A DNA stretch of 64,000 bases, taken from assembly GCA_021209875.1 (NCBI GenBank), contig JAGYVD010000010.1:434001-498000 (forward strand), written 5' to 3'. This stretch comes from Rosellinia necatrix. Taxonomy: Eukaryota > Ascomycota > Sordariomycetes > Xylariales > Xylariaceae. Below the pieces are notes generated by a model that had not been told where the DNA came from, searched no databases, and was given only the letters and a program-made list of their open reading frames with translations. Both the position numbers and the translations under genes were made by a program. This document shows positions 9,519-64,000 of this stretch, in pieces; within the stretch, counting starts at the first letter, position 1, and the number at the start of each line of letters is the position of its first letter.

Positions 9519-9549
9519 AGGCTTCTGGTCCCGCAGGGACCAGAAGCCT
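9519..9549. other. 14-bp stem hairpin in family A LTR
   Basis: AGGCTTCTGGTCCC and its exact reverse complement are separated by GCA. The stem is also present in the copies at about 54,569-54,600 (one G-T mismatch) and 62,525-62,555. Confidence 0.85.
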
Positions 9550-9582
9550 TTTAGGCTAGGTTACCTTATCTAAGCTACACAA

Positions 9583-9617
9583 TCCTTATCTAGCTAGCTC
9601 CGCTAGCTAGATAAGGA
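9583..9617. other. 16-bp stem hairpin in family A LTR
   Basis: TCCTTATCTAGCTAGC and its exact reverse complement are separated by TCC. The same hairpin occurs at about 54,508-54,536 and 62,462-62,492, with a loop reading GCA. In the last copy one arm has mutated G to A. Confidence 0.85.
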
Positions 9618-12477: not shown

Positions 12478-12742
12478 TAGCTGCAATAACAGCAGTTAAA
12501 ACAAAGTCCAACTATACCTATATATTAGGAAAAAAAACTAAAGTTAAGAAAAAAAAAGAGCTATATATAAAGCCGACGGCCAGAATTCCTATTTATATAT
12601 ACTACTAGTTATTTATTATATAACTGGCCTACTATATTTACTACTTTATACTTGTACCTATTTAACCGGAGAATTAATCAAAGGCTGCCAGGTTATTTAT
12701 TTGTTTAGCTAATCAAGGTTATTATAACTATAGGTTATAATA
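12478..12742 (-). repeat. G element 3' LTR
   Basis: Moderately RIP-mutated, more strongly in the inner (right) half. It keeps the central GCCGACGGCCAGAATTC and the CTTTATACTTGTACC stretch, which align with the other copy. Confidence 0.8.
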
Positions 12743-18700: not shown

Positions 18701-18984
18701 AAACGTCCAGCCGTATTAATATTATTAGCTTACGTTAACAACTTTATAAACTTTAAAAACTAACGCTAAAGTTTATAATAGTTATATTAAATACTATTAT
18801 ATAAAGCTAGTTTATTTAAGTTATTTTTTTTAAAACGTACTTATTGTTTAGTTTCTGCTAAAAAAATTAAATTATTTTTTTTTGCTGTAACGTTTTAACA
18901 AATTAATTAATTAATTAGTTGTTTAATTAATTAAAAGAATTTAATATTTTTTTAAACAATAAAAAATAAACTTTAGTTTTATAA

Positions 18985-19249
18985 TAGCTGCTATAGTAGT
19001 AGTTAAAATAAAGTCTAACTATACCTATATATTAAAAAAAAAAAACTAAAGTTAAAAAAAAAAAAAGCTATATATAAGGCCGACGGCCAGAATTTCTACT
19101 TGTATATACTACTAGCTATTTACTATATGACTGGCCTACCGCATTTACCACTTTATACTTGTACCCACTTAGCCGGGGAACTAATCAGGGGCCGCCAGGC
19201 CACTTATTCGTCCAGCCAATCAGGGTCATCATGACTGTGGGTCATGACA
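18985..19249 (-). repeat. G element 5' LTR
   Basis: The inner (left) 90 bp is AT-converted. The outer part, 19,080-19,249, is close to unmutated and gives the best view of the original LTR. Confidence 0.8.
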
Positions 19250-21166: not shown

Positions 21167-21377
21167 TAAAAATTATATAATATTAGTTTATAAACTAATT
21201 AAAAAATTAAGGTGTTATATAATAAATTAACCTTTTAAATTATATAATATTAGTTTATAAACTAATTAAAAAATTAAGGTGTTATATAATAAATTAACCT
21301 TTTAAATTATATAATATTAGTTTATAAACTAATTAAAAAATTAAGGTGTTATATAATAAATTAACCTTTTAAATTAT
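21167..21377. repeat. 67-bp tandem repeat, three copies
   Basis: Three copies at a 67-bp period are identical as far as I can see, followed by a partial fourth. Each unit contains the perfect 16-bp palindrome TTAGTTTATAAACTAA and the segment TTAAGGTGTTATATAATA. It lies in the E internal region just right of the F insertion point. Identity between copies in otherwise decayed DNA suggests the duplication happened after the AT conversion. Confidence 0.9.
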
Positions 21378-23574
21378 ATTATTAATATTAAAAATACATA
21401 AATTAATTTAATGAACATTAAAGCTATAATAAATTAAAAACTTTGTATTTTAATAAAAATATATAATTTTTGAAAAATTTTATAACTTTTATTAAAAATT
21501 TATTAATTAATATAAGTATATTATAATTTTTATAAATTATTTAATATAAAACAATAAAGCTTTTATTAATTAAAAAACTTTAATAATGGTTTTTTATTAA
21601 CATATTATTAATATAAACTATTTATAAAAATTAAAACTAACTTGTTTAATAAAATTATGATAATAATATTATGGCAGCTATATAAAAAATATATATATAT
21701 ATCTTTTATACCTTATTTTTGAAAATATTATATAATATTAAATGCAACTATAATATTTTTAATCAAAAAATCCTAGTTATTATTATAACGTTAAACAAAT
21801 AAAAGCTAAAATTAATAAATAATTAGAAAAAACTTTTTTATAATTATAAACTATGAAATATTAAAATATTTTAATATAAAATAATATTGAAATTTAAAAC
21901 AAGTTAAATAAATTAAACTATTTTTAAAATATAATTTGTTAATTATTTTTATTTTTAAAAATAAACGTAGTAGCAAATGTTTTATTATATGAATAAAAAA
22001 CTTAATAATATAAAAAGCTAAAAAAGATGTAAAAATATTTAATAATTTTTAATTTATTACTAGCAAAATAAAACCTCAACAAAAACTAAAAAAGCTTTAC
22101 TATAAAATTTATTAATAAAAATTAATATTAAAAAATATTTATAGTTTAAACAAGCTAATAATTATAATATATATATAATAAACTATATAAAATACTGACC
22201 AGCAAAAATATTTTATAATAAAACTTTAAAGTTTTAAAATTATTATTAATTCTAATTATATATAATAATATTGAACAATAAATTTTAAATAAATATATAA
22301 AAATAACTATAAATATAATAATATCTTAATTATAGTAAACTATTCAAAAAAACATAAACAACTTTTTATATAATATAAGCTATAATAATTAGTATAATAA
22401 AAACATGTTATAAAAGTTTATTTAAAATATTTAAAATATTTATAATTATAATATTAAATCAAAAATATAATTTATTTCTGTTTTTATTAATAAATTAGAT
22501 AAATGAACAAATGTAAAATATATATTAGCTTTTATACAACATTATAAAATTATTAAATAAATAAAATAATAAAAATTATTTTAATTAATAATTAAAACTT
22601 TATATTAATTATTATTAAAATAATTATTTTATAAGTTTATAAAACCATTACTATATAAAATAAAAATAAAACAGCTGCAAAAAACTCAAACAATTATTAG
22701 TTACAAAGAAATATGTAAAATAAAAGCATAAAATAGGCCAATAAAAATTGTTTATTTTATAAATTTTGTTAAAAACATTTAAAAAATCTAAATATAAATA
22801 ATAAAATAAGCTAATTATAAAGAATAAAACTTTAATTTTAATATAAAAACTATATATTAACATGAAAAAAATAATTCTAAAAATGAACTGTTCATTTAAT
22901 AAATTAAACTATTTTATAATATAATCAAAGTTTAATATAATTATTAAAAATAAAAACATATTTATTTTAAAAATATTATTTAATTAATAAATTAATAAAT
23001 TAATATTTTGCTGACCGTTTATAATTAAATTTAAATAATTTATTATTAAAATTAAAAGCTAAACACTTAAATAAAAAACTAGTTAAATTATAAAAAAAAT
23101 TATTGTAAAAAAATTAAACCTTTAAAAATATATTATAAAAAGCTTTAATATTAAATTAATTAAAACAGTTAAAAATTTAATAATATATAATACTTAATAA
23201 AAACTTTAAAAATAATATAAAGTTCTTAAAAAATTTATTAATATAAATTTAAAAGTAGCAGAACTTTTAATAAAATTAAACAATTAATTATAAGCTATAA
23301 AGATGTTTTTAATATAAAATATAAAAATAATAATAAAGCTATATAAAAAATGTAATAAAATGAAAATAAACAGAAATATAAACTAAAATAAATGTAACAA
23401 AAATAATATAATATAAAAAATTTATATAATAATTTAATAATATAAAAGCTTAACAAATATTATATAAATAAATATTTAACGCAATTTTCTTTTATTAAAA
23501 AATATTATGTAACAATTATATGTTTAAAACTTAAACATATTTTATAAACAAGCTATTTTTTTTTAAAAAAAAAA

Positions 23575-23825
23575 TAGTTATAAATAACTAGTTTTTTAAC
23601 CGTGGCATATATAATATACGCAGAATATTTATATATTTGTTGCTAACTAATACATATAAACCGGCTATAGCGCATAAACTAGACCTATTTTACACACCTG
23701 CACTTAGCCAGAATTCTAGTGGGCTAATTCCTCCCACTTACTCTTTCCTTTTTCATCTGTAGATTTTCGTACAATACATCACTTATTGCTGAAGCCTTGA
23801 CTTCTTATTTGTGACTGGTGCAACA
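23575..23825 (+). repeat. E element right LTR
   Basis: The first half (23,575-23,690) is RIP-like and aligns with the intact outer half of the left LTR. The second half (23,691-23,825) is almost unmutated and matches 1,211-1,345 in inverted orientation. It ends GTGCAACA. Confidence 0.65.
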
Positions 23826-23830
23826 AGCTA

Positions 23831-44625: not shown

Positions 44626-47266
44626 TCACAGCTCCCTAATAGCTGCCCGTAAAAAGTCGGATATCTCTCTTACTTCATCCTTCGTTGTTCCTTGGCTTCC
44701 CATGATATACAGAACGTTACCAAGCACCCTCGAGTGCACGTTCCAGGCCAACCCTTCTGCATTGTTCTGACCAGCCAGAAGTTTCTCTCGGAGGCCTTCG
44801 GCGGCCATACTCGCGTATCCGCTCCCGTCAGCCGCCTGTAGGTGAATGGCCAGCACGCTGCCGATGGCCCAGGCACCTGCTATGCTATTAGTTTGGAACG
44901 ACATCCACTCAACCAAAGGTAACGGCCAGATAGACCAAATGCACTCTCGTGCTTCGGCTACGCCCCCAGCACGAGTCGCATCGTTGGCCACTGTCCAACC
45001 CTCCGATTTCGCCCAACTCCACGCATCAGTCTTTTCCATAAATTGCAATTGCTTCAGAGATTCAATTGCCACCTGGCACCCAACGGGGTGAGCCGTGTAA
45101 CTATGGCCATGGAGCAACGCGTCTGACTTTTCTTGGCTAGCGAAGGCATTGAAAATGAGTTCGGATGCGAGAGTGACACACAGCGGAACAAGCCCGCCAG
45201 TGAGTAACTTGGCGTGAACCGATATGTCCGGCTGTACACCAAGGAAGGAGGCCGCCGTGAGTCTGCCTAGGCGGTAAAGTCCCGTAAAAACCTCGTCAAA
45301 GACAACGGGCAGTCCTCTCCACATGTTGGGGTCTTCGAGGGGACTTTGCAGTGTATCTTGGCCGAAGAGCGACGCATTCTGCCTCACAACCTCTACTAAT
45401 GTCTGCTGAAAAAGGGGGTCGCTAACGCTGGGTTAGCACTCGTTGGACATTGTCAATAAAAATGCTTAGTGCCGAAACTTACACCATAACCATGCCTCCT
45501 GCACCTAGTACTACGGGTTCTAGTATCAAGGCCCCAAACTTACGACCTTGTTCCAAGTGTCGTCGTACGGTGGAGAGTATATACCTCTCGTAGTATTTAT
45601 GCTCACCTCGAGCTATGCGCCCTCGAAGGTCAAAGACATCTGAAATATTCGAGAAACTCAAGCCTGATTCTGCCACAATCCCAGGTGGTACCTGAACCTG
45701 CCACTTTCCTGCAACACATAAGACTTGCGGGTAGTCTAACCAGACACCCTTACCTTCATACCACTCCACCTTCTCGTTATATATATTTGGCTCGGCGCAG
45801 CTCATGGCGCCGATGGTGTCGCCGTGATAGGAGCCCTTGAGTCCCAGGATATCAATCTTGGTATCGGGCGACCAGCCATACCGCACACGGGCCGCGCGCA
45901 GGGCCATCTTGACCGCGACCTCCATGCCTGTGCTCCCGTTATCGGAGAAGAAGACGCGGCTCAACCGTGGGTTCCGGACGCTCTCGAGCATCACGGTCGC
46001 CAGCTTTAGTGCCGGCTCGTGGACGGTCCCGGCGAACATCACATGCCCATAGCGACCGGCGGCGTATGCCGCAGCCATGGTTAGCGTGGAATTGCCATGA
46101 CCCAGGCCTTGTGTCCACCACGACGCAGATCCATCGAACGACGGCCGTAGTAGAGACTTGCTAGTAGGCGTTGGCGACGAGCTAGAAGCTAGAGTCTGGA
46201 AGTGGTTCCCGTGAGCGCTGTCGATAGTTACGATGTCGGGCACCTGAAGTAACTCCTGTTGTGTAAATGGATACCAAATTCTCTTGTGAGCTTGTGGCGC
46301 CATGTCCTCCAAGGCCTTGATGCGGGAGCTGTGTCGATCGTCGAGACGAGTGAGTATATCTCGTACCCCTTTCGCTCTACTCTTCTCCAGGTAGTATTTG
46401 AGCATGGATTTTTCGTCCTTATCTTTGCCATCGTCACGATTTCGAGCAGGGGGCATAGGTAAAGCTGCGACCGTAACGCCGTATCGCTCTCCAAAGTATT
46501 CTTTGAGGTACTTCGAGTTGCCGTAGCTGTCGTCCTCAAACAAGATGATGCTTTCTACGTCATACCCTCTCATCCTAAGTGACTCGAACGCGGAAATTGT
46601 AGACGATATTCCGCCTAACTTCCAGTCTCCCACGAGCACCACCGGACATCTTAGGACAGAGTACAGATCAGCTTGTGTGGTGCCGGAAGGAGCTGGAGAA
46701 TGAACGCCACCGGCGGTTTCGATAAATAGCCAGCCCGGACCAATAGATGCCCTTCGGGAGGCGAAATCGTGGACCGATTCCAGGATACGACCGTTAGACA
46801 CAACCTATGCGGGATTTTAGTTACGTCCGGCGTTTTTATTTTCTTCTACACAAGGTCTAATACATTTCCTTGGGCGGCAATATGCGGGCTCACAGCTTGG
46901 CTGTATTGGTATAAAGTCTCATATGCAACGCCTTTGGTAAACTTCCTGATATGGCTTTCAATCCCAATAGTATCAGCATGAGACCCTTCGCTTCAGACGA
47001 TCTCGGCTTCTTGTGCTTCTTCTTCTTGAAGGTTAGGATAGGATTCAAAGATGGAAAAAGGTGATGCAAGACAAACACTGGTCATCTGCCTCATCTTCCG
47101 CCCCGGTGGAGACAGGCTTTAAATACGCCGTCGACTCGTCCTTCCAGATCTGCTTCGAGGCATTGCAGAGTATTGAGGTGATAACGGTTTTCCCTACATC
47201 GGTACTGGCGCCATATATCTTATAAACGCGTAGGTTCCGCCATAGCAGGGATCCGACCGGGGACAT
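44626..47266 (-). CDS. bioDA: Bifunctional dethiobiotin synthetase / DAPA aminotransferase
   Basis: Four exons: 47,079-47,266, 46,864-46,990, 45,483-46,804 and 44,626-45,421, giving 810 residues, close to other fungal BioDA proteins. The N-terminal BioD half has P-loop GASTDVGKT (19-27), YLKPVSTGAEDEADD, SPHIAAQGN and FIETAGGVHSP. The BioA half starts near WYPFTQQ (282) and has GHGNSTLTMA, FFSDNGSTGMEVAVKMA, KGSYHGDTIGAMS, FDEVFTGLYRLGR (Asp588) and PLP Lys617 in HAKLLTGG. It converts KAPA to DAPA (normally with S-adenosylmethionine) and DAPA to dethiobiotin (ATP, CO2). Fungal relatives are thought to be mitochondrial; an Arg-containing N-terminus would allow that. It is divergent from bioF. 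The first intron (donor GTGTTT, acceptor CTGAAG) is the least certain boundary; the intron 2 donor could be GTATTA or GTGTAG. Confidence 0.93.
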
Positions 47267-47664
47267 ATTCGATATTCGATATTATCGTAATTATAAGTAA
47301 CAGCAATGAAACATCACAGAAAATTTTCACGCGAACCTATAATGTGTTTGGAAGCCATCGTAAAGGCGAGGGGAAAGCCCTAGTAGCGGATAATACGTCC
47401 TTATCCGGATAAATGCCGAACTCCCCGAAGCATGCATGGCTGTCACGTAGTGCGGAGTGAGTGGTATGGATCTGCCGAGGCACCAGTTCCGAATATATCT
47501 CGTACATGCTTCTGCACTAGGATGGGAAAATTCTACGCCGAAAGCCGTCGTTGGCAGCTGTGTTGCATATAGTTAGGAATGGAGAAATGGTGTAGGCGTT
47601 TAGATTCGAGGCTCTGCACAATGCGGTTTGTATCCTCAGGGTCAATCTTAGTCACCAACAAACC
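47267..47664. promoter_or_regulatory. Bidirectional bioDA-bioF promoter region
   Basis: 398 bp between two divergent starts of the same pathway, so co-regulation is likely. It holds CGGATAA at 47,387-47,393 and the palindrome TTATCCGGATAA at 47,401-47,412. A repeated ATTCGAT lies just upstream of the bioDA start. No classical TATA box is evident on either strand. Confidence 0.6.
47401..47412. promoter_or_regulatory. 12-bp palindrome, candidate regulator site
   Basis: TTATCCGGATAA is a perfect palindrome. A third half-site, CGGATAA, lies 13 bp to its left (start to start 19 bp). CGG half-sites are typical of fungal Zn2Cys6 regulators, but no regulator is known for this site. Confidence 0.35.
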
Positions 47665-49139
47665 ATGGTTCCCATTGTTCAGCATGGAAGCTTGGAATCG
47701 ACTCTCCAGAGGCGCTTGGCACGACGCGCATCTCAGGGTCGATTGCGGTATTTAGAGATCCCCAGATCAAATTTAGTCGACTTTTCATCGAATGACTATC
47801 TATCACTCTCACAAGATTCAGTCATCCGTAACGCCTTGATATCGCATCTAAACAATGCGGATGGGGGGCTCTCGGCCGCCCCCTTAAACCGGCGGGTGAT
47901 TGGTTCTGGAGGCTCCCGCCTACTAGATGGGAATTCAGCTTTTGTTGAACACCTCGAACATAAGATTTCTGGTTTTCACGGCTCGGAAGCGGCACTACTA
48001 TTTAATTCCGCCTATGATGCCAACGTTGGCCTCATCAGCTGCGTTCCAGAAGCGGAAGATATCATCGTATATGACAACCTCATTCATGCGAGCATTCACG
48101 ATGGGATGCGGCTGTCCCGTGCTACTCAAAAGATTCCATTCGCACATAATTCCATTGTTCAGCTAAATGCTGGACAGAGTGTGGTGCGGGGGAACGACGG
48201 CATTGATACTACGGCATCCAGAGGACGACCTCAAAGTTTGGAGTTTGCGTTGAAACAATTGATACACCATAACCAACGGGTTCGATCGGGGATATCAAAT
48301 GTGTTCATCTGTGTCGAAGCTCTCTATAGCATGGACGGCGATATGGCGCAGTTACAGTATATCTGTGATCTAGTGGAGAGTTTGCTTCCAAAAGGCAACG
48401 GCTACATTATTGTGGATGAGGCGCACTCTATTGGCCTCGTAGGGGACCGCGGCCGGGGCCTCGTCTCTGAACTTGCATTGGAAGATCGCGTGTGGGCACG
48501 TGTTGTCGGCTTTGGCAAAGCTATGGGATGTGCTGGTGGTTTGTACATCTATACACATCCATCATACTACTCTTACTGACTTCTTTGTCTTGAGCTGCAG
48601 GTGCCGTTCTCTGTTCTTCCATCGCGCGTCTCTACCTAATCAACTATGCCCGAACCCTTATATATACAACCGCAATGTCGTTTCCATCACTTGCTAGTAT
48701 AAGTGCAGCATACGATTACATGATTATCGAACCGGCCGAACAGCGTCGACAGCAACTAAGAACACTAATACAGCGTTGTCACGTTCAACTACAAGGTCTC
48801 CATGAACGCCTGAGACCGACCGCTGATATCCTTCGCTTACCCGGAAATGCATCTAGCTCCCCCATCATTCCGTTATTCACCAAATACTCTAGTAGCCTAG
48901 CTCAGCACTGCCAGGCGTCTGGGTTCATGATCCGTCCAATAGTTGCGCCGACTGTTCCCAAGGGCGAAGAAAGAGTTCGGATCTGCCTCCACGCTGGAAA
49001 TACAATTGAACAGATTGACGGGCTTTGTCAAGCCATCGAATCATGGTTAAACGATATAGAAAATAGACGCGGCGTTAGAGAGGATGATAGAGGGAGCTCG
49101 AACCAGACACTGGTAGAAATGGTCAAGGCCAGACTCTGA
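47665..49139 (+). CDS. bioF: 8-amino-7-oxononanoate (KAPA) synthase
   Basis: Two exons, 47,665-48,538 and 48,601-49,139. The 62-bp intron (GTTTGT...CTGCAG, branch site CTGAC) splits a Gly codon in FGKAMGCAGGAV. Spliced length is 470. Family motifs: VDFSSNDYLSLS, RVIGSGGSRLLDGNS, NLIHASIHDGMRLS, CVEALYSMDGDMA, IIVDEAHSIGLVGDRGRG, and PLP-binding Lys285 in GFGKAMG. It condenses pimeloyl-CoA (or pimeloyl-ACP) with alanine to KAPA, the first committed ring-building step. The C-terminus is Ala-Arg-Leu, fitting the peroxisomal PTS1 consensus; BioF is peroxisomal in some Aspergillus species, so the same is likely here. About 35 hydrophilic residues precede it. It is divergent from bioDA and tail to tail with bioB. 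Confidence 0.93.
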
Positions 49140-49182
49140 AAATATAGATCGAGGAACTCTGGGTCTGCCCATGTATTAGGAC

Positions 49183-49540
49183 ATCTACATCACCAACAGG
49201 GCACACCGCGCAGTATAAATAGCATGTATTCTAAGGGGGAGCGTGAGCCTAATATAGGTCGCTTTTAGTACGAAGCCGCAGCTAAAAGTGTAGCAAACGT
49301 ATGCTTATTTTTTAGCGTTAAATTTAATATGTAGTCGGGCTTAAAAAGCTAGCCGGAAAAATATTTTATATTATATATATTATTTATTAATTAAAAAAAA
49401 CTTAATTTTTTTTTAGTGGCCTGTTGTTATTAAATAATAAATAAAATAAATTTAAAGCTATTTTAAGCTTAATATGTTTAAAAATTAAAGTTATAAAAAA
49501 AAATTAAATAATAAAGCTTTAATTTTAATAAAATTTAATT
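49183..49540. repeat. Tandem duplication of bioF 3' spacer, unit 1
   Basis: This 358-bp unit starts 44 bp past the bioF stop. Its left half (to about 49,370) has near-normal composition, and its right half (49,444-49,540) is AT-converted. The left half matches 49,541-49,727. The right half matches the intact 3' flank of bioB at 63,211-63,312. In both alignments nearly every difference is C-to-T or G-to-A toward the inner copy. Confidence 0.75.
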
Positions 49541-49727
49541 ATTTATATTATTAATAAAATATATTATATAATATAAATAATATATATTTTAAAAAAACGT
49601 AAGCTTAATATAAGTTGTTTTTAATATAAAACTATAATTAAAAATATAATAAATATATGTTTATTTTTAATATTAAATTTAATATATAATTAAATTTAAA
49701 AACTAGCTAAAAAATATTTAAATTTAT
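49541..49727. repeat. Tandem duplication unit 2, left part (RIP-mutated)
   Basis: An AT-converted copy of 49,183-49,370, in register from the start (ATTTATATTATTAATAAAA against ATCTACATCACCAACAGGG) to about 49,727, with a 2-bp deletion. The match then stops, where inserted AT-rich DNA seems to begin. Confidence 0.75.
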
Positions 49728-50637
49728 ATTTTAAATATTTATTTTATTTATAAATAAAATAATAAAAATTAAAAAATATAATTAATTTATAAAATAAAAA
49801 AGTTAAAAATATATAATTAAATATAATTAAATAAATTTTTAAATAAAGCTAGCTAAATAAAATAAAAATATAATTAAATTTATAAATAAAAGCTTTTTTT
49901 TAGCTTTTATAATTTTTTTAATAAATATAATAATATAATATAAATTTGTTTTAAATTTAAAATATTAATAATATATTAACGCCTGGTTTTTAATAAATAA
50001 TAATATTTTTAATTTTAAATAAAAACGCGTTAATTTATTATTAACTTTTAGCCTGCTATTATTAAAATTATATAATAAAAATAAATTTATTAATAAATTT
50101 TTTAAATTTAATATTAATTTATTATAAATTAAAAGCTTGTTATAATAATTAAACGTTAAATTTATTATATTTATTATATATTTTATATTATAAAAATTAA
50201 TAGTTATAATTTAAAACAAATTTAATATTAATTTATATAAAATATAAACGTTTTTATATAAATAATATTAATATATAAATTTTTAATATATATATTATAT
50301 AAAAGCTTAAAAAAAACCGTTTAAATAAATGTTTTAATATAAATTATTAAAACTAATATATAATAAATTTAATATTAATTTATTATTAAATTAATATAAA
50401 CAATATAAAAATTAAAAATAATAAGATTTATTTATATAAGCTTAAGCGGCCGCCTGTTATAATTATATTGTATTAAATATTTATAAAATGTTTTAAAACG
50501 TTAAAAATAAAAATCTGTTGTAAATTTATAATAAATTTAATATTAATTATAAAGTTTTATTATATAAAACTATTAATAAAATTTAAAATTAAAGTTTAAA
50601 ACAAAAACAAATTAAAAAACTGCTGTAATAAAAGCTT

Positions 50638-50677
<40 letters not shown>

Positions 50678-53600
50678 CAATATAAACAATAATATAAATA
50701 ATAATAAAAATAATAAAAGTTATAATAAAAAAATATAAATTTGCTTAATAAAATTTTTTTTAAATATTTTAACGCTAAAAGCTGTTAATAAATAAATTAA
50801 TTATAAATTAAGTTTAAATTTAATACGTGATAACTTAAATATTAAATAAAAATATATAATATAAAATATTTTTAAATAGTTTAATTATTTTATATTTTAT
50901 TATAAACTTAATATAAATTTAATATATAATAATATATATTTTTTTTATTTAATAGTCTAGAGCAAATTTGCTGCAAATTTATTATATAATTAATTAAATA
51001 TATTACTGCTAGATTTTATTAAAATTAAAAGCAAATTTGCAACAAATTTAATATTTATATTAAATATATTTATTTATTTATTAATAAAAACAAATTTAAT
51101 ATAAATTTAATATTAAATAAGCTTTTAAAATAAAATAATAAATATATTTAAAATTTAATTTTTATTAGTTTTTATAATATAAAATAGTTTAAGCTTATAT
51201 TAAATATAAAATATTTATTAGTTTTTAATATTTTAATTAAAAATATTTTATAATAACGTTTTATTATATTTAATATTTAACGGTTTAAAAGTTTTATATT
51301 ATTTTTATTTATGCTTATATTATATATATATTAAACAGCGCTTTATTTAAAACTATAATTTAAATATAATAAACAGTTTTATAAAATTTAAAATATTTTA
51401 GTTTTTAAAAAACGTTATATATAAAATAAAAAATAGTAATAAATAGTATATATATATTAAAATAATACTTTATTTTAAAAATTTACTACGTAAATAATTA
51501 AATATAATAAGCTATTTATAACGTTTATTATTATATTTATTTTAAAGCGTTTTTATTTATTTTTATTTTATATAATAATATTTAAAAATAGTTTTTATTT
51601 ATTAAAAATTAAATTAATAATTTTAATAAGCTTAAAGCAGCTTATTTATAAAGCTTTTATAAGTTGGATTTATTATATATAATTTTATTTAATTATAAAA
51701 AGCTGTGCTAAATTATTATTAAAGCTGCGTTAGCTATTAGTTTATTATATAAGTTTTTATTTGTTATAATTTTATTTAATATTAGTTTAATTAAAAGTTG
51801 TTTTAAAATTAAAGCTTTAATAAAGTTGTTTTATTTATAAAAAAAAATATACTGCTTTTTAAATTAAATATTTAATATATAAATATTTAAAAATTTATAT
51901 GTTTAAAAATAAATTAATATAAATTAAATATAATATAAATATATATTTATTTAAAGTTAAGCTTTAAACAAGCTGTTATAAAAACTAAATATATAATTAT
52001 ATATATATAAAATAAAAGTTTATATTAATATAAACTAAGCTAGCTTGTTTTAATAAAAATATTAGTTTTTATATAAGTTTATTATAACATTATATATTTT
52101 TAAGTTAAATTTATTAAACTTATATATAATAAATAAATATAATTATTTTTAAAACAGAATAAATTACTGCTTTAGATTTTGTTTAAAAACATAAAATTAA
52201 ATTATTTTTAATAAAAACTATTAATTAAAACATAAGTTAATAATTATTATAAATTTAGCTTAAAATAAAATATTAGTTAAATTATTATTTTATAATATAA
52301 TCTGTTTAATTTAAAAATAAATATTGTTTTATATAATTAAAATAAATATTTTATAAAACAAATATAATAATAAAAAGTTTTTATAAATATATTAATTAAA
52401 CTAGCTTATATAATTATATTATTTATATAAATAATTCTAATATTAAATATTTAATATATATATTAATATTAAAATATAATTTAAATTATTATAATTTTAA
52501 AATATTAATATTTTATAATGTTTTATTTTTAAACGTAAATAATTATAAGCTTAGTTTTTAAAAATAAATAACGCTATATATTAATTATAAATATTTATTT
52601 TTATTTTAAACTAAAATTTATAAAGTTTTAATTTTAAAACGTTTATAAATAAATAATAAATTAAATAGTTGTTTATATTTAATATAAATATTTTATTAAA
52701 ATTTTTAAAACGTTAAGCTATTAAATAAAGTTTTATATTATATATTTAAATAATAGTTAAAGCAGCTATAAATTAAATTTAAATAGTAATGCTTACACGT
52801 TATAAAAAAGCTCTGCTAATTAAAATTATTATAATATAAAAGCTTAAATAGTTTACAACTTTTTAGTTTTTTATAAAATATTTATAGTTTTAACATTATT
52901 TTAAATATAATTTGTTTTATTTTTTATTTTTTTATTAATAAATTATATTTATATTAAAAACGTATTAATTTTAATATTAAAAACTTTTATATAAATGTTT
53001 TTATAGTTTTTATTATAGTTTAAAATTAAGTTTAGCATGTTTAAAAAACGGTTATATTTTTAATAAATATTAAATATTTTTAAATATATAATATAAATAT
53101 TATAAAAATAAAGTTGTTTAAATAATATATTATTAATATAAATAGAAAAAAGCTTTTAAAATTTAATATAAACTTTTAATAAATAAGTTAAAAATAAAAA
53201 AGCTGTATATAAGCTAAACAAAAATAATTTTTATAAAAAACTTTAATTTTTATTTAAATTTAAGCAGTATTTATTATAAAAATATAACTAAAATTAATTA
53301 AAACATGTTTTTAAGTTTTTTTAATAAAATATATATTTAAACCTGCGGTTTAAACTAAATTAAATATTTATTATATTATTAAATATTTAAGCGCTATTAT
53401 TTTAAATTAAATTTAATTATTAATTAAGCTGTTTTTAAAAAAACAAGTAGTATATTTAATATTATTTTTAAAATTTTTAAAACTAAGCTTAAAAAAGCAA
53501 ACTAAGCCTGCGGAGCTATTTTATTTTATAATTTAATTTTATATTAAATCTGCTTTAATTTATTATTTAATTATTAAATAGTTTTTATTAGCTAATTTTA

Positions 53601-54484
53601 AATTATTTAAGCGGCTTAAATTAAAATAGTTTTTATAATTTAAATAAATTTTATAATATAAAATATTAATTAATAGTTTTTTAAGTTATTTAAATAATTT
53701 TATAATATTTTTATTAAAATTTAAATCAAAAAAAATAAAAAGCTATAAATAAAAATCTATTTAATTAAAAACTTTAAACTTTAATATTATATTTACTACA
53801 GGTTTAAATAATAGTTTTAAAGCTAATATTATTATTTAAATAATTAATAATATTTTAGGTTGTTTTAAAATAAATATAAGTTAAGTTTTAATTAAATTAT
53901 TAAGCTATAACTAGGTTATAAAACAGCTGATTTATTTTAAGTTTTTTTTTTAATATAAGCTGGTTTTTTATATATGTTTTTATAATAATAGCATATATGC
54001 TTATAGCAATATAAAATCGGGCTAATTTTAATATAGTTATAATTATTTTATTTATTATAAAGTTTATTTTTTAATAAAATATATTTAAACATAAATTATT
54101 TTTAGTTTAATTTATTATTAAATTAACGCAGTTTATTATTTTTAAAGCTATAATTAATAAATAGCTAAATTTTTATTTTTAATTTTATTTTAATTATAAA
54201 GCAGCTATATATAAAGTTATTAAATAATGTTTTATATAAGCTGTTATAAAAAATTATTATTTTTAGTTTATATATTAAATTTAGTTTATATATTATATAA
54301 ACAAAATTGTTTATAACTAAAGCTATATATAATTATAATTTAAATAATTATATATAAATTATTATAAAAGTTAAAAATTTTATATTTAAATAAAATATTA
54401 TTTTTATATATTTTAATTTAAAAATATTATTTATATTATAATATTTTTTTTAATTTATATATAAAACTATAGCTATATTTAAAA
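49728..54484. other. AT-rich stretch without identifiable gene
   Basis: Almost pure A+T. A short motif resembling AAATTTAATATTAATTTA recurs irregularly between about 50,100 and 51,110. With 62,628-63,210 it may be the remains of one roughly 5.3-kb insertion interrupted by the element at 54,485, but I found no terminal repeats. Confidence 0.55.
50640..50673. repeat. AAT trinucleotide microsatellite
   Basis: About eleven copies of AAT, followed by looser AAT/AAC/ATA sequence to 50,720. Confidence 0.9.
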
Positions 54485-54600
54485 TGACACAGTCAGGAAG
54501 GGGCTCTTTATCTAGCTAGCGCAGCTAGCTAGATAAGGATTATGTAGATTAGATAAAGTACTAGCCTAAAGCTTCTGGTCCTTGCGGGACCAGAAGCTTT
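54485..54600 (+). repeat. Left LTR (partial) of family A
   Basis: Begins TGACACAGTCAGG and retains both hairpins with little mutation. Homology to the other copies ends in a T-run after the second hairpin, so the inner 70 bp is deleted or replaced. Confidence 0.75.
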
Positions 54601-57600
54601 TTTTTTTTTATGCCGGCAGATAAAACACGCTTAGTTTTTTAACGTCCGCGTATATTTAAACCTTAATACAGCTTTTTTTTATATTTTAAGCAGCGCTGTT
54701 TATAAAAAAAGTAGAATTGCTAGCTTTTAAGCTTAACTGTTGCTAGCAAAATCTATTAATATTTATTTTATAGATTTAATAGTTCGATCGATTTAATAAA
54801 TCTTACGTTAGCTAATTAATTAATTATTATATTTTAAAACAACAGCAGCTAAATTTAACTCTGCATTATATTTTAGATAATACTACCGCATCCGGCTATT
54901 AACATATTAAAATGATCTGTTGTTTTTTTTAAACTTTAATTATTTTAGTATTAAATATTTAATAACTATAGTATTACGATTAGCTGTTTTTTTAAACTTT
55001 AATCAGCATTATATTTAAATAGTAAAAATTATAACTTATAATTAACACTAGCTTTACTCTTTTAAAAGCCTGCGTTAGGTTTTTTAACAAGCACGCAGGT
55101 CTTTAATACTACCTGATTATACTTTTTATTTTATTTTTAATTTTAAAATTTAATTTTATTTTAAAATATATATAAATATAAATTTATAAAACAGCTAATA
55201 ATATTTGTTAGCTTAATTATAAAACAACTTATATATATTTATTTTACTACTAATTTATTTAATAATCGTTAATATGTTAGAGCGTAAAATTAACCCGGAA
55301 TTTTTAACATTTAAAAAGTTCAAAGTAATTTTAATAATTAAAAATTTAACTTTAAAGCTTATAAAAACAGAAAAAATCTTTAGCTTTAGCATAATCTAAT
55401 TTAAGCTATTAGTTTTAAAAATAATGCAGAAAAAACGTTATATTTTGCCGGCAAAACTTAAGTTTATTAAGCTAGCATTTTTTTAATTTATGCAAAAATT
55501 AAAAACTAGAACTATAAATATTAAACATTTTATATTAAAAAAAAAATATAGTTTAAAATAAGTTTAATAATAAGTTTAAACTAAGCAATAATAAAAAATT
55601 ATAAGTTTATATTTTAAACTTGTTTAAAAAACAATATAAAATTAATAAAAAATTTGATAAAAACTTTAAAATTATTGCTTAGTTTAAAACCGAAAAAAAC
55701 AACGTTTAATAATTATAACAGTTTTTCGATTTTTTTTAAAAAAAAATAAATAGTTTTAAAAATTATATCGCTAAAAATATAAATAAATTGTTATAATAGT
55801 AGCAATTTAAATTATAAGATTAAAAATCAGAATTTAAACCGAACAAGCAAGCTTTTAAATTATTTATTCCAGCTATAAACTTTTTATAAAATTAATATAA
55901 CAAATTAAAAAATAATATAACTAAAATAAAAAAAATATGCTAAAAATATTAAAGCAGCAAAAATAATTAATTAATTAATATAATAATTAAAAAATACTAG
56001 AATATTAGCCGATATAAGGACTTTAGCCTTTAAAGCATTTTATTGCGCTATTAATTAGTTATTTAAAGCTGCATTAAATGCAACTAAATATATAGCAGTA
56101 CTACTTGTTTAATTTTAACATTTTAGTTATTAATACCTAACCGCAGCTATATTAGCCTTAGAATTATTGCTTAGATCGTTTATTTTAATAGTTTTAATAA
56201 AACTAGTATAAGTCTTAGTAATAGCACTAGCACTTGTTATTCCAACAGTTTGTTTTAAAATATAAACTATATACCTGTTAATAAAAGCTTTATTTATTAA
56301 AATAATATAACAGCATATAAAATTCTTTATTTTATATTAGTTTAAATATAATATACTTGTAATATTTTTTGTTATAACATTTTTAAAACTATAACATTTA
56401 ACAAGTAATAAAAACTTATTAAAACTATTTTTATTAAATAACAACTTCAGCAATTTAAATAGCTCAGATATAAACGATAAAAAAAAGCGGCAGAAAAAAA
56501 CCTTTAAAAAGACTTTTTAATTAAAAAAGTTAAAATAGCAGAAATAACTATAAATATAAATAAAAAAACTAAAAAAAAAAATATTAAACGTTTAACAGCT
56601 TTGTTTTTTTATTATATAATAATTATATAAAACAGGCTAATATTAACTAGTTTAACTTAAATAAAAAAAATAAAAACGATATAAAAATAATAGCTAATAA
56701 AAATAAGTTTATTTTTATTAACGTATTCTGTTTCGCAGAAAAAGTTAATTTATTTTTTAAAGATTTAAAAGTAGCAGAACAAAATATTTAATAAATTTTA
56801 ATTATATTTTAAACATTGTTAAAAAAACTAGCAGTTTTATAATAAAATAATAAACTAACTATTAATAAACAACTTAAGCTTAAAATATAAAAATTAAACG
56901 TTATTTTAAATAAAATAATTATTTAATTTAATATATAACCTGCTGTAATAATAAAACGTTTTATTTAAACTAAATTATTATTAAAAAACATTATATAACA
57001 AAATACTGCTTTTATTACGTTTATATAAAAAAAACTAAAATATGTTTAAACTATAAAAACTTTAAACGCCGATAATAGAAATTAATATAGCGTTATAATT
57101 ATAATATAAACTAGCATAAACTTTAAAATTAAGTAATATTTTTTTACGCTTAATATAAAAAATATTTTAGTTAAATATATAATTTAAATTGTTAAAACAA
57201 AACTTTTTTTAATAGCAGCAGTAAAAAATAAATATTTACAGGTTAAAAAAAGCAATTAAAACTATAACAGAAAATCTAATTAAAAAAATAAGCAACAGAA
57301 GAACGTAGATTAAAATAAAAATAAAAAAAAGTAGTATAATAAAAATAAAAAAAAAAGCCGTAAGCCCGAATAAAAAAAAAAAAATAATAAGAAAAAAAAC
57401 GGCCGAAATAAACGTAAAAATAAATACGATTGCTATTAAAAAAAAGCGCGTTAATACAGCTAAATTAAACTTGTTAATATTAAACGCAACATTATTTTAT
57501 ATTTTATTTAGTTTTAAATTAAATAACAATAGAGCGTTTATTATAATCGATTATAGCTAATTATATAAATATTATGATCAGGTGTTTAATTTAACATGTA

Positions 57601-60600
57601 ATTAAAGTTAACACGTTATATGTTATATTAAACGTTTAACTAAATATATTTAAAACATGTTATTTTTAATTAAATATATTTGCAAGCGATATAATATATT
57701 ATTTATATTATATAATATATTGTTTTAATATTTATATAAGTGCAATTATTTTAATACTATATTAAAGAATTATATAAAAATTGTTTTTTTTTTAGCAGAA
57801 CTAATTAAAAATATAGTAGTAAAAAAAATTATAAATTTTAAATAAAAAAATGAATCGATTATACTGTCGGTTTAAAAAACGTTTAATAAGTTATATAATT
57901 TTAAAAAAGCAAAAGTAAAAACAATAATTTTTATATTTTAAAATTATTATTAAAAATTTATAAATAATAAAAATATTATTATAAGCCTAAATATAAGTTA
58001 TATTTGCTTAATAATAATAAAATAATTATTAAGCAAATTTAAACATATTTTTAAAAATAAACAGGCCAGATTTAAAAAGTTAAAAATAATAAAATTAAAT
58101 ATAAACAAAAAGCTATATTAAAATTTTATATATTAAGCAATAATAATTATAAATTTTATAATTATTAAAATTTATAAACACGGCTTAAGTTATAAAAAAA
58201 AAAATAATATTAAAATGCTATTAAAAAGCAACTTTTTAAATATTCGCGAAATATTAATCGATTATAATTTAAATGTAGTTATTTTTGCTAATATTAAAAA
58301 TTTTAAAATACTTTTTTAAATGTTTTTTAAAGCAAATTTATGCGTTTATAAAATAATTTTAATATAAAAAGTTATTTTAGCGCCTAAAACATTAATGCTA
58401 GCACCAGCTAAATATAAACTACTACTTAAAAACCAAAATTTTATATTTAAACTATTATAAAAAAATAGTATAGCAGCTTTAATTAAATCTACGACTTTTT
58501 TAAGCGTAATAATTATTAATCTGTTTTTTAAAACTAAAACTATTTTTAAAAACATTTAAATAAATATAATTTAAAAACAACTATATTAAAAATCAGGTAT
58601 TAAAAATATATAAAAAAAATCTTTAAAAGCTGTAATAATAACTGCAGGCTTAACAGCAGCTAAAGCTGTAAATATAGCTAATATATTGCTAATTAACACT
58701 AGTTTATTATTTAATACGTTTTTAAATATTTTATTAGCTATTAATCTTAGTATTTTTATATTTAAAAATATATATATTTAATAATTTCAAATTATTAAAT
58801 ATATATTTATTAGCAGACCTTATATTAATAACTTTTATTATCGCCGTTATTACTGCTAACATGTATTAAAGTTATAACGTAACTTAAAACTTGGACTTAA
58901 CTATAATAAAAACTAGTGCTATCGCTAAAATAATTAATACGTTAAAATAACACGGTATTTTTTTAGCGGGCTTTTTTTCTAACAAAATTTTTAATATAGC
59001 TAACGCGATTAATATAATAAATATAACTAACGTAATTTATATAACAGAAATGCCTGTAGCAAAAACAGGCAAAAAGTTAAACAAAGCATTAAAGCTTAAA
59101 ATTTAAAAAGTCCTGTTAATACTAAGTATAAAAAAGCCTAATAAAAAAAACGAAGTTAAAGCCTTAAATAAACAGTTTATTTATATAAAAAAAGATATTA
59201 TAGCACTAGAAATTTTTAAATAGTTAAAAAAAATACCGGATATTTAAAAAAACTAAAGTATTATTAATATATTAAAAAAAAGAACAAATAAAAATCCTTT
59301 TAATAAACAATTAGCAATAAATAAAGCTAAATTCTTAATTATATTTTTTTAATATATGCGATTAAAAAGCAGTTAATATAATATTCGATAGATTTTATAA
59401 GCAAAATAAAATAAAATAAATTAATAGTTTTTTTATTTGCATACTTAACTTTTATTATATAGCTTATATATAAAAAAAATTATATTTACGTTTAGTAGTT
59501 AATTTAAAAGTTTTAAATAAAATCGCTGTTTTAAATAATTATTTATTATTATTATAATTTATAATTATCGCGTTAATTAAAAAAAAAATATTTAATTATA
59601 GTAAATATAACCGTATTTTTTATTAATTTATAATTTATTTTAATTATTAAAACCGATTTATAATAATAAGTCCTTAAAAACTGGAGCAATTAATAATAGC
59701 TTTAATAAGATTTTATAACACGTTTACATATATTTAACGTTTTATAAATAAATTGCTTCGTTTTTATAAACATTATTATAAAACTTTTATTAATAATATT
59801 ATTATTTTTTAGATATTAAAACAAATTATTTAGCTTATTTATATAATATTTTTATATTATTTAATAAAAATTTTTTTTTTTTTTAAAAAAACTTTTATTA
59901 TATATTTTTTATAAAATTATTAAGCTTTTAAATAAACGTTTTAAATATATTAACAACAGAAAAACAGCTAGCAGTATTTAAAAACTTTAAGTTTTTAAAT
60001 TAATTAAAAACTTTAAAGCAATACTTAAAAAGTATAAAATTTTTTTATATATTATTGCTATATTATATTAAAGTTGCAGAACTTTTATAAAAGCGTAAAA
60101 CAGAATTATTTAATAAAAAACATAAAATAAAACAATATAAAGCTAACAATTATAGCAAGTATTAAACATATTATCAATTTATATATTTTAAACTAACTAT
60201 AGCTAAAATAAAATTATTTAAAGCTTTTTAAAACTTAATCTGTTTATATATTACGTTTTATTATTATAATCCCGCAAAAATATTATATATATAAATAAAT
60301 AACTTATTAAAAAAGCTTTAAAATAATATTATTTTATATTAAAAATAAATATATATAAAAACCAGGATTAATAATTTTAAATATATAAGTATTACTAATA
60401 ATATTTTTAAATTATTATATATTATAACTAAAAATAAAATATAAACTTTTTAAACTAAAAATAGCTTGCGTAGTTTAAGCATATTGTCGCTTATAAACTA
60501 TAATTAAAGCTTTAATTAACCTAGTAGTTTTTTTTACTGATTATTTAACAATAAAAAATATATTAAACTAAACTAAGCTTAATAATAGATCTACGGACTA

Positions 60601-62437
60601 TATAAACAAACATTTAATTAACGCGTTTATATATTTATTATAATATAAATTATAAATATATTATATTTTAAACAGACTAAACTTTGTTTTAAATATATTT
60701 AATTAATTAAAAATATTATTAATTTAATAAATATTAAAAAAATAGTCTGAACAAATAAAAAACTAGTACTAAATAATATATAAATAATATATTTAAAACC
60801 AGTAATAAAAAAACAGTAAAAGCTAAAATTATAATAGATTATATTAAAGATCTTAAGTATTAAAAAGTTCTAAAAGCGATCTATAAAAATAATAAAAACG
60901 TTATAAACTTTTTAAGCTTAAATATTTTTTGTAATTATAAACAATTTATTATATAACGTTAATTAAAAAATAAGCATAGATTATATATATTTAAAAACAA
61001 ATAATTAAATTTTTAATAATAGCATATAATAATAAATACTATTTTAATAAACAGCGTATAATAAAAAAATTAAAGCTTTATATAATTAAATTAAAAACTT
61101 ATAAAGTAAAAGCATACCTAGATTATTACAACAAATATAAGTTATATAATACTAGCAAAAAAAAGCTGCATAATAATTATTAACCTATTTAACTAAAAAA
61201 TATTAAGCTAATAAAAACAATTATAATAAACTTTATTATAAGCTTATTTAAAATATTATTTTTAGCTATATTATAATAATTAAAAAATCTAACTATTATA
61301 ATATATTAATAATAATAATATATATTATATTAAAACGTTTATTATTTATATTTAGCAACAAAAAATACTTTGCTAAAAACTAGGCAAAAATATTAGCTAA
61401 ATAATTCCTGTTATTTAATTAAAACGTATTAAGCGGCATTATTTTTAATTAAAATTATAAATTTACTTTTAAATTTTAAATAAAGCTTTAAAAAACTATA
61501 AAAGCAAAACTTTTAATAACAACTTTTTATTATTTATAAAATAATAAATTGTTTAAATAAAAAATTAAATAATAAAATTGTTATTTAATACTATATATAT
61601 ATATATTTAAACCGCAAATAAGTAAATATGTTGCTATTTTTTACAGTAAAACTTAAATAAAACATACTTAGAATTTATTAAATTATTAGCTTATAAACAG
61701 CTTTTTAAATTTTAGCTACTTAAACTAAATAAAGTTTTTGCTAATATAAAAATAAGTATAACTATTAAAAACATTTAATTTATATAAAAATATTTTTATA
61801 AAAATATAAAATTAGCTATAAATTTTGCAGCAGCACATATAAAATAATACTATAATAACAAGCATAAATTAATAAAATTTAATATAAAAAATAAAATATA
61901 TTTAAAGCTTTATTTAAAATATTATTTTTTTAAAAAGCTATTTAAAAAATATTTTTAATAACGCGCAAAGCTATAAAAAATTAAAAAAAAAGTTAGTAAA
62001 TTAGCTTATAAATTAAAATTATTAAAAACTTTTAATATTTACTTTATTATTTTAGTCGCGCACTTATTACTTAAAAAAACAGATAAGAATTTTTTTTATC
62101 GAAAAATACTAGTACTAGGCCCGGTGTTTAAAAAGCAGGACTTAAAAAAAAAATAATTTATTTAAGATTAAAATAATTTTTAAGCATTAAATAAACCGTA
62201 CTAAAAACAGATTTAATTATTTTATTAAATAAAAAAAAATATAGTTATAAAAACAACTAGTAAAAATCGGAGTAATAACTGCGTAGCATTAAAAAACTAA
62301 TTAAAAAATATTAAAATTAAAAAAAAATAGACCTCGGCTAGAAAAATTAAAAAAAAGCTGTAGCTGACCTTATAAACAATAAAAAAAAAGTTATATAGTT
62401 ATTAAAAACAATAACGCTTTATTATAGCCCCAGCACT

Positions 62438-62622
62438 TAATATAATTAAAAAAAGGGGCTTTTTATCTAGCTAGCGCAGCTAGCTAAATAAAAATTGTGT
62501 AGATTAAATAAAGTATTAGCTTAAGGCTTCTAGTCCCTGCAGGACCAGAAGCCCTTCCTTCTTTAATTTTATATCACATTTTTACAGACTTAATACTACA
62601 CTACCCTTAGTAATCCTTACTA
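62438..62622 (+). repeat. Right LTR of family A
   Basis: The inner (left) end is RIP-mutated (TAATATAATTAAA against TGACACAGTCAGG). The outer part is closer to normal (GGCTTCTAGTCCCTGCAGG, CACTACCCTTAGTAATCC). Both hairpins are still visible. Confidence 0.75.
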
Positions 62623-62627
62623 TAAAA

Positions 62628-63210
62628 TATATATATTATTTATTTATAGCTTAATTAAATTTATTAATTTAAAATTGCTATAAAATATTATTATAATCTA
62701 TTTTTAATTAATTTTAAAAACTAGCTTATTATTAATTAAATTATAAAAATAACTTATATATTTTAGCAGACTTAAAATTTAAGTTTAAGCTTTTTAAACA
62801 AGTTAAATTTAATTTAATTTTAAATTTAAATCGGTTTAGCTAAAGTTTTTTTTTTTTTTTTACGTTTAAAATATTATAAGCAAAAATATAGCTTGCGTTA
62901 AGCGATTTTTTTTTTTAAAAATAAAAAAATGTTTATTATATTAGCTCTAGCTTGTTTTTTTAAAAAAAGTTGCAGGTTTAATTTAATATAAATATAAGTT
63001 AATAGTAAGCTAAAAATTATAATATTATTTATATTATTAAAAAATTTAGTTTATATAGTTATTAAAAATAAAGTTTTAGCTTATATATTTTTTGCTACGT
63101 TATTAGTTTTAAAACAAAAAAATATTATTATAAATATAATATTGTTATAGCTTTTAAACGTTTTTTTAATATTAAAATGTTTAATTTATTATTTTTTCTT
63201 TTGTTCTAAT
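62628..63210. other. AT-rich edge next to bioB
   Basis: About 580 bp of AT-rich DNA with no gene. It changes abruptly to normal composition near 63,211. Confidence 0.6.
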
Positions 63211-63312
63211 AAACAAATTCGGGGCTATTTCGAGCTTAATATGCTTGAGAGTTAGAGTTGTAAAAAGGGAAGTTGGGTGGTGGAGCCCTGACCCTAGTAG
63301 AACCTAATCATT
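63211..63312. repeat. Tandem duplication unit 2, right part (intact)
   Basis: The unmutated 3' flank of bioB, ending 30 bp from its stop codon. An AT-converted copy in the same orientation lies at 49,444-49,543, with a 2-bp difference in an A/G run. Nearly all other differences are C/T or G/A. Confidence 0.75.
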
Positions 63313-63342: not shown

Positions 63343-64000
63343 CTAGACCTGCGCACTGACCCTTCGTCCTTCATTATCTCCCAGGATGATGTCGTCGCAA
63401 TGCAGAAGACCAGAGTCAACCAGGGTATTGCTTTTACCTGTGCGAAGAGGCTCCAGACCCCATCGACTGAACATTGCCTTGTCCTCATCCCAACCGTTGC
63501 AATCCGTAGTCAACATTTTCTCCCCCGTAAAAATGGCGTTCGCGCCGGCCATGAAGCACAACATCTGCTCGCTCTCGGGCATCGTCACTCTCCCAGCCGC
63601 CAATCGAATGATCGTCGCGGGCATCACTAGTCTGGCCGTGGCTATACAGCGGACGAGGTCCTCCAACTTGACGGGTTCTTGGCCGAACATAGGTGTCCCC
63701 TTGATGGGAACTAATTTATTCACGGGGAATGATTCGGGGTGCTCTGGAAGCGTAGCCAGAGTGTGGATCAGTCCGACGTGGTCGGTCTGTGGCACTTCCC
63801 CAAGGCCCAGAATGCCGCCGCTACAGACGTGGATGCCCGCGTCTCTCACATTCTCCAGCGTCTGAAGCCGTTCATCGTATGTCCTCGTCGTGATGACTTT
63901 CGAGTAATGTTCTCTTGATGTGTCAAGGTTGTGATTGTACGCGGTTAAACCTGCCTCCTTGAGCTGCTTGGCTTGCTCTTTGTCGAGCACTTTGGTGTCC
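63343..64000 (-). CDS. bioB: Biotin synthase, C-terminal part
   Basis: The frame is open from the right edge to a TAG at 63,343-63,345, giving about 218 residues of the C-terminal part. The N-terminus, including the CxxxCxxC motif that binds the radical-SAM cluster, lies beyond the window. Clear BioB motifs: YNHNLDTS, SGGILGLGE, NKLVPIKGTPM, IRLAAGRVTMPE (this Arg region holds the 2Fe-2S ligand in bacterial BioB), QMLCFMAGANAIFTGEKMLTT, and NGWDEDKAMFSRWGL. It inserts sulfur into dethiobiotin to make biotin; fungal BioB is normally mitochondrial, which cannot be checked here. No intron interrupts this part. It converges on bioF across a 14-kb AT-rich block, and together with bioDA it completes the late biotin pathway. 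Confidence 0.95.
   Translation of the reverse strand, partial: DTKVLDKEQAKQLKEAGLTAYNHNLDTSREHYSKVITTRTYDERLQTLENVRDAGIHVCSGGILGLGEVPQTDHVGLIHTLATLPEHPESFPVNKLVPIKGTPMFGQEPVKLEDLVRCIATARLVMPATIIRLAAGRVTMPESEQMLCFMAGANAIFTGEKMLTTDCNGWDEDKAMFSRWGLEPLRTGKSNTLVDSGLLHCDDIILGDNEGRRVSAQV

What the first reader, a model, noticed from the sequence alone, without database searches (positions are those of the whole stretch)
49183..63312. RIP-scarred tandem duplication of the bioF-bioB spacer, later split by transposons
Directly seen: the intact left edge (49,183-49,370) has an AT-converted copy at 49,541-49,727, and the intact right edge beside bioB (63,211-63,312) has an AT-converted copy at 49,444-49,543. 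The order is therefore L intact, R mutated, L mutated, a 13.5-kb insertion, R intact. The simplest history is that bioF and bioB were once tail-to-tail neighbours about 0.4 kb apart. The 358-bp spacer duplicated in tandem, RIP hit the duplication, and transposons then opened the second copy. This would be a recent, traceable break-up of a metabolic gene cluster.
Basis: partly seen in the sequence, partly recalled or inferred. Interest (0 to 1): 0.8.

Follow-up and report, generated by a model that had tools for sequence, protein, structure and literature searches.

The report
Transposon insertion with mutation-spared ends
The matching edges between the biotin genes bioF and bioB are the ends of a common fungal transposon that jumped in between them, and the fungus's repeat-mutating defence (RIP) has wrecked the inside of this transposon while largely sparing its outermost hundred or so bases.

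Summary
The reported sequence matches are real and RIP-like (L1 to L2: 62 C>T/G>A, 1 other; R2 to R1: 35 and 0). The "duplicated bioF-bioB spacer" is not. L and R are the ends of a dispersed repeat, element A (40 of 40 scored candidates match for each end, window included). Full copies share one layout, L1-M-R1.L2-body-R2 (split direct repeats); 361-bp L-M-R "solo" units also occur. Element A fills 49184-63310 and holds a nested 8.1-kb LTR retrotransposon (54485-62622). Without A, the bioF and bioB stop codons lie 76 bp apart.

The interesting part is where RIP stopped. In 18 full copies L1[1-100] keeps 766/918 C/G, its inner twin L2[1-100] only 199/893. A sample picked by body rather than by ends agrees, somewhat weaker. 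One LTR pair in each of two other families in this window is also mutated on its inner sides only. So RIP here seems to reach poorly into the last ~100 (right) to ~180 (left) bases of a repeat. The class of A stays open: no target duplication (n=28), no recognisable protein. The layout suggests a tyrosine-recombinase retrotransposon.

The parts
49184..63310 (.). Element A with nested element B; about 5984 bp of A without B and its duplicated target
   Evidence: Ends placed against a solo copy; dispersed copies
49184..49368 (+). L1, outer left repeat, mostly unmutated
   Evidence: 43/51 reference C/G kept in the first 100 bases
49369..49443 (+). M, middle piece found in the solo unit; not detected in the body
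49444..49541 (+). R1, inner copy of R, mutated
   Evidence: 8/43 kept in the last 100 bases
49542..49727 (+). L2, inner copy of L, mutated, directly joined to R1
   Evidence: 7/49 kept in the first 100 bases; junction
63211..63310 (+). R2, outer right repeat, mostly unmutated
   Evidence: 40/43 kept
54485..62622 (+). Element B, nested LTR retrotransposon of 8138 bp (orientation by LTR reading only)
   Evidence: LTRs about 54485-54670 and 62438-62622
54480..54484 (.). Target duplication TAAAA, left of B
62623..62627 (.). Target duplication TAAAA, right of B
47596..49139 (+). bioF, two open stretches (47596-48579, 48594-49139); start and intron not worked out
   Evidence: TIGR00858 is the best model for both pieces, each below the whole-protein cut-off
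63343..64000 (-). bioB, 3' part, runs off the window
   Evidence: TIGR00433, 226.6 bits, cut-off 225
45479..47281 (-). bioD-bioA-like fused gene, exons only partly worked out
   Evidence: bioA and bioD models, below whole-protein cut-offs

Best explanation
A copy of a dispersed transposable element with split direct repeats (element A: L1-M-R1.L2-body-R2) inserted into a 76-bp tail-to-tail spacer between bioF and bioB. RIP-type mutation then made its interior AT-rich but left its outer ends mostly untouched, about 100 bases on the right and up to about 180 on the left. Later an LTR retrotransposon (B) inserted into the already mutated body and was mutated in turn, again mainly on the inner sides of its LTRs. 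Shown: dispersal, layout, lack of a detectable target duplication, nesting, direction and position of the changes. Inferred: the order of events, RIP as the agent, and the reason for the clean ends, for which I think it most likely that a base is mutated efficiently only if paired homology continues on both sides of it.
For: L and R dispersed: 40 of 40 scored candidates each, of 152 and 108. Layout L1-M-R1.L2 in 18 of 40 L copies (L2 scores 119-184 against 40-64 in the rest), L upstream of R2 in 0 of 35 right ends (scores 46-59). No target duplication in 28 copies, with 14 of 14 in the LTR-B control. Nested B with TAAAA on both sides. L1[1-100] 766/918 kept against L2[1-100] 199/893, outer better in 18 of 18; R2 0.58-0.94 per bin against R1 0.09-0.43 and solo 0.71-0.96. 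Picked by body: R2 found in 32 of 35, 1012/1372 kept, 31 of 32 at 50% or more; L1 found in 22 of 27, 876/1122 kept, 22 of 22 at 50% or more. Families B (12:2 left, 5:19 right) and E (9:2 left, 1:34 right).
Against: The edge is not a sharp wall: retention falls gradually on the left, and one right end of 32 (L112) keeps 12/43. Right ends not picked by their own sequence keep less, 236/383 in nine found of twelve. The GC fall at 100 bases on the left is partly composition, since solo units dip there too. B and E rest on one LTR pair each, and the split points for E were chosen after seeing the data. L074, a unit without L2, has a mutated second half, against the rule that short units escape. CpG, not CpA, leads among mutated sites in the 60-185 zone.
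Confidence: 0.88

Rival explanations
1. One reading: the 358-bp bioF-bioB spacer duplicated in tandem here, was RIPed, and transposons then opened the second copy.
For: The order L, R mutated, L mutated, R intact fits it, and the changes are RIP-like.
Against: The same unit and the same order occur at many other places, without bioF or bioB; both edges coincide with the ends of the dispersed element.
Confidence: 0.02
2. Element A is not a tyrosine-recombinase retrotransposon but another element without target duplication, such as a rolling-circle (Helitron-like) element in a fixed short-plus-long tandem form, with the solo unit as its short derivative.
For: No target duplication; base before the left end A in 15 and T in 12 of 28, base after the right end T in 21 of 28. 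M is found in the solo unit and was not detected in the body. No tyrosine recombinase (0 matches) and no protein family in six frames of one copy.
Against: No Helitron_like_N match over the cut-off (one, E 0.144); the right end ...AATCA lacks the CTRR end of canonical Helitrons (recalled); rolling-circle tandems should vary in order, yet all 18 full L copies have L1-M-R1.L2.
Confidence: 0.4
3. The clean outer ends are not spared but restored (gene conversion from clean solo units), or come from a mutated circle recombining into a clean solo unit.
For: Solo-like units are common (19 of 40 L copies; 18 without L074), and a circle recombining into R of a solo unit would give the same order.
Against: R1 and L2 have the same sequence and were not restored. 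Retention falls off gradually. LTR pairs of two other families show the same outward polarity.
Confidence: 0.07

Closest known systems
Repeat-induced point mutation (RIP)
   Same: Almost only C>T/G>A changes in long repeats; most short solo units stay clean, as reported for solo LTRs of crapaud in Podospora (PMC10787394, sections 6 and 11 read).
   Different: Outer ends are spared. For N. crassa, leakage into flanks is reported (PMC7296669, passages); a parallel is that about 130 distal bases escape in one construct (PMC4858203, section 11). RIPCAL reports one family mutated mainly in its central regions and one slightly more towards its ends (PMC2621366, passages).
Split-direct-repeat tyrosine-recombinase retrotransposons (PAT, Ngaro)
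   Same: Outer ends plus an internal junction of both ends, direct orientation (layout from passages of PMC4157794); no target duplication found (that this is typical of the group is recalled).
   Different: No reverse transcriptase or recombinase recognised. In fungi the group is reported from a single Ascomycota genome, as one remnant (PMC3783388, passages).
LTR retrotransposons (elements B and E)
   Same: B: LTR of about 186 bp, 5-bp target duplications in 14 of 14 solo copies. E: direct repeats of about 290 bp some 6.5 kb apart.
   Different: The two LTRs of a pair differ mainly by which half is mutated, outer halves being cleaner.

Membership tests
Split-direct-repeat (PAT/Ngaro type) retrotransposon | Terminal repeats matched by an internal junction of the two ends, direct orientation | tested here: met
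   18 of 40 L copies with R1.L2; L upstream of R2 in 0 of 35 right ends
Split-direct-repeat (PAT/Ngaro type) retrotransposon | No target site duplication (recalled feature) | tested here: met
   28 copies, 3- to 5-base matches within the shuffled range (3-base maximum 5, equal to the 95% point); control LTR-B 14 of 14
Split-direct-repeat (PAT/Ngaro type) retrotransposon | Encodes reverse transcriptase and tyrosine recombinase | tested here: inconclusive
   Nothing in six frames of one mutated copy; PF00589 0 matches in the genome; the 17 RVT_1 places lie outside the stretches I fetched as A, one about 15 kb from an R end not examined. Heavy mutation could hide both.
LTR retrotransposon (for element A) | Identical complete repeat at both ends | tested here: not met
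   No L upstream of R2 in 35 right ends
LTR retrotransposon (for element B) | Direct LTRs and a short target duplication | tested here: met
   TAAAA on both sides; LTR pair 54485/62438
LTR retrotransposon (for element B) | gag-pol with reverse transcriptase and integrase | not tested
   Body of B not translated
RIP | C>T/G>A changes in repeats, few others | tested here: met
   Window pairs 97 of 98 changes; full copies against a solo reference 1170 C>T/G>A of 1395 differences, 155 the other way, 70 transversions
RIP | Preference for CpA | tested here: inconclusive
   Positions 1-60: CpA 0.18, CpG 0.01; 60-185: CpG 0.45, CpA 0.27; core: CpG 0.88, CpA 0.82, near saturation
RIP | Acts before meiosis, needs a RID/DIM-2 type methyltransferase | not tested
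   No search for the enzyme was made; the timing cannot be seen from one genome

The most novel reading that the evidence does not exclude
RIP in this fungus has a built-in edge exclusion: a base is mutated efficiently only if paired homology continues some 100 to 180 bases on both sides. One rule would then explain the clean outer ends of full-length elements, the escape of most units of about 360 bp or less (two exclusion zones nearly touching), and clean solo LTRs: a crossover between the LTRs of an already mutated element keeps the clean left part of one and the clean right part of the other. In addition, element A is an abundant split-direct-repeat retrotransposon in an ascomycete, where the group is almost unreported.
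Probability: 0.3. Interest if true: 0.65.

Novelty: new variant of a known kind. Interest (0 to 1): 0.42.

Why it matters
Element A carries the same sequences outside and inside, in many copies, so position and sequence effects on RIP can be told apart without an experiment. If RIP reaches poorly into repeat ends, its length threshold and its homology search gain a measurable scale, and the question left open for Podospora (why solo LTRs are clean while full copies are mutated; PMC10787394, section 11) has a simple candidate answer. Ages read from LTR pairs in such fungi would be wrong, because the two LTRs differ by position and not only by time. For the biotin genes the insertion looks ordinary: it widens the gap, and neither open reading frame examined is cut by it.

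Tried and rejected
Tandem duplication of the spacer: rejected. Ordinary LTR element for A: rejected, no L at the right end in 35 of 35. SINE, tRNA-like or known RNA: no Rfam match at E up to 1 in 3 loci with solo units, no tRNA in 4. Second copy of M in the body: 8 copies, forward scores below the shuffled maxima; reverse slightly above in one (L036, 36 against 35). Reverse-complement L or R in the body: 4 copies, rcR below the shuffled maxima, rcL slightly above in two (L030 64.5 against 59.5; L031 62 against 61); I take these as chance. Selection artefact: copies first picked by clean ends; a body-picked sample shows the effect smaller but present. In one search five left ends were matched to L2 by mistake; one search replaces its left-end numbers. 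Solo classes: one search lists 19, one search leaves out L074 and, for the rates, L076 (identical to the reference), so 17 were used.

Literature: ten searches, seven of them on RIP and repeat ends. In what I saw (listings, passages, three sections) no paper describes LTR pairs with clean outer ends; RIPCAL comes nearest. Most subscription journals are not held, so this is no proof of absence.

Full report
Observation. The four blocks exist at the stated places. L1 to L2 differs by 62 C>T/G>A changes and one transversion; R2 to R1 by 35 C>T/G>A and nothing else. A solo unit from another contig aligns to 49179-49543 at 100% in a two-letter alphabet, score 361.5 against 135-144.5 for five shuffled versions.

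What it is. L and R are dispersed: for each, all 40 scored candidates match, of 152 and 108 candidates, the window's own copy included. Full copies run L1-M-R1.L2-body-R2. Of the 40 L copies 18 are of this kind, 19 were classed as solo-like and 3 as other. One of the 19, L074, has a mutated second half and was left out of the solo class. In none of 35 right ends does L precede R2 (scores 46-59, against 119-184 for real L2). The junction R1.L2 is the two element ends joined without a gap. Read on the other strand this is A1...B1.A2-M-B2, the split direct repeat layout of PAT-type elements (passages of PMC4157794). No target duplication was detected in 28 copies; the same script gave 14 of 14 for LTR family B. 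No protein was recognised in six frames of one copy, the genome gave no Phage_integrase match and no Helitron_like_N match over the cut-off, so the class of A stays open.

In this window. Element A fills 49184-63310. Element B, an LTR retrotransposon, lies inside it at 54485-62622 with target duplication TAAAA. A without B is about 5984 bp; the full copies L030, L031, L033, L034 and L037 are about 6.0-6.1 kb. A's body is AT-rich right up to B (GC 3% in the 150 bases before it), so A was probably mutated before B arrived. Between the stop codons of bioF (ends 49139) and bioB (ends 63343) only 44 + 32 = 76 bases do not belong to A. bioF and bioB are the best family models for the flanking genes; bioB passes the curated cut-off even as a partial protein, the exon pieces of bioF and of the bioD-bioA-like gene do not. 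A biotin gene cluster is known from Aspergillus nidulans (title in the reference list of PMC3713238); I did not test relatives.

Where the mutation stopped. In 18 full copies L1[1-100] keeps 766 of 918 C/G, L2[1-100] 199 of 893, and in all 18 the outer copy is better kept. L1[101-186] keeps 357/539 against 163/529 in L2; R1 keeps 169/772 in its last 100 bases. R2 in 34 right ends (35 less L038) keeps 0.58-0.94 per 17-base bin, nearly as solo units (0.71-0.96), while R1 keeps 0.09-0.43. Against solo units, retention on the left is mildly lowered from about 60 to 180 bases and drops strongly between 180 and 210 (0.48 and 0.23 against 0.82 and 0.74). On the right GC falls from 33% to 10% between about 80 and 120 bases. 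The GC fall at 100 bases on the left is partly composition, because solo units dip there too.

Control for picking. Copies had been chosen by clean ends, so I took the first 35 of the 40 scored matches to the body (1059 candidates; the last 5 were partial). R2 was found in 32 of 35, 1012/1372 kept, 31 of 32 at half or more. Left ends were held or fetched for 27 of 35; L1 was found in 22, 876/1122 kept, all 22 at half or more; of the other five, one was cut off by the stretch fetched and four had no L at the expected place. The right ends not seen before keep 236/383 (nine found of twelve), so picking inflates the effect but does not make it. Seven full copies in AT-rich surroundings and eleven in normal surroundings give similar curves (0.90, 0.81, 0.62 against 0.95, 0.89, 0.75 in the first three 40-base bins), so the state of the neighbouring DNA is not the main cause.

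Other families. For B, sites kept only in the 5' LTR against only in the 3' LTR are 12:2 in the left half and 5:19 in the right half (Fisher p 0.00015). Two further B 5' LTRs (L091, L098) lose C/G towards their inner end. For E, an LTR pair at about 12448-12738 and 18959-19245, the right copy is mutated at 9 sites and the left at 2 in alignment columns 121-240, and 1 against 34 in columns 241-400 (ranges chosen after seeing the data). One pair per family is little, but both point the same way as A.

Mechanism. I think it most likely that efficient mutation here needs paired homology on both sides of a base; this is an inference. It would also account for the escape of most 361-bp units. In N. 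crassa about 130 distal bases escape in one construct (PMC4858203, section 11), whereas leakage into flanking sequence is reported there too (PMC7296669, passages). RIPCAL gives one family mutated mainly in the centre and one slightly more at its ends (PMC2621366, passages). The edge effect is thus not wholly new, and it is not universal.

Against a simple rule stand the gradual fall on the left, the mutated right end of L112 (12/43), the mutated unit L074, and the CpG lead in the outer zone.

Verdict. The finding as told, a local tandem duplication, is wrong. What lies there is a transposon insertion in an ordinary gene spacer, which happens to show, with an internal control in every full copy, how far RIP-type mutation reaches towards the end of a repeat.

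Noticed in passing
12448-12738 and 18959-19245: Direct repeats of about 290 bp, 82% identical, 6.5 kb apart: probably the LTR pair of another RIPed element (E), with the outer halves cleaner.
   Followed up: partly
9461-9642: Clean copy of LTR B in reverse orientation inside the AT-rich island, 88% to a solo LTR over 189 positions.
   Followed up: no
1210-1366 and 23670-23826: Inverted pair, 93.6% identical over 157 bp, GC-rich within AT-rich surroundings; related stretches in several fetched loci.
   Followed up: no
5521-5836: Overlapping direct repeats, offset about 140 bases and less, 78-94% identical: a short tandem array.
   Followed up: no
14646-15461 and 21282-22071: Long inverted match, 67% over 859 positions, in AT-rich sequence.
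   Followed up: no
L030, L031, L033, L036, L037, about 850 bases from the left end of element A: A spot of about 50 bases keeps 32-52% GC although most of the body is near 10%; the cause is unknown.
   Followed up: no
45479-49139: bioD-bioA-like gene (minus) and bioF (plus) are divergent neighbours with bioB beyond the insertion: the biotin genes are still in one row.
   Followed up: partly
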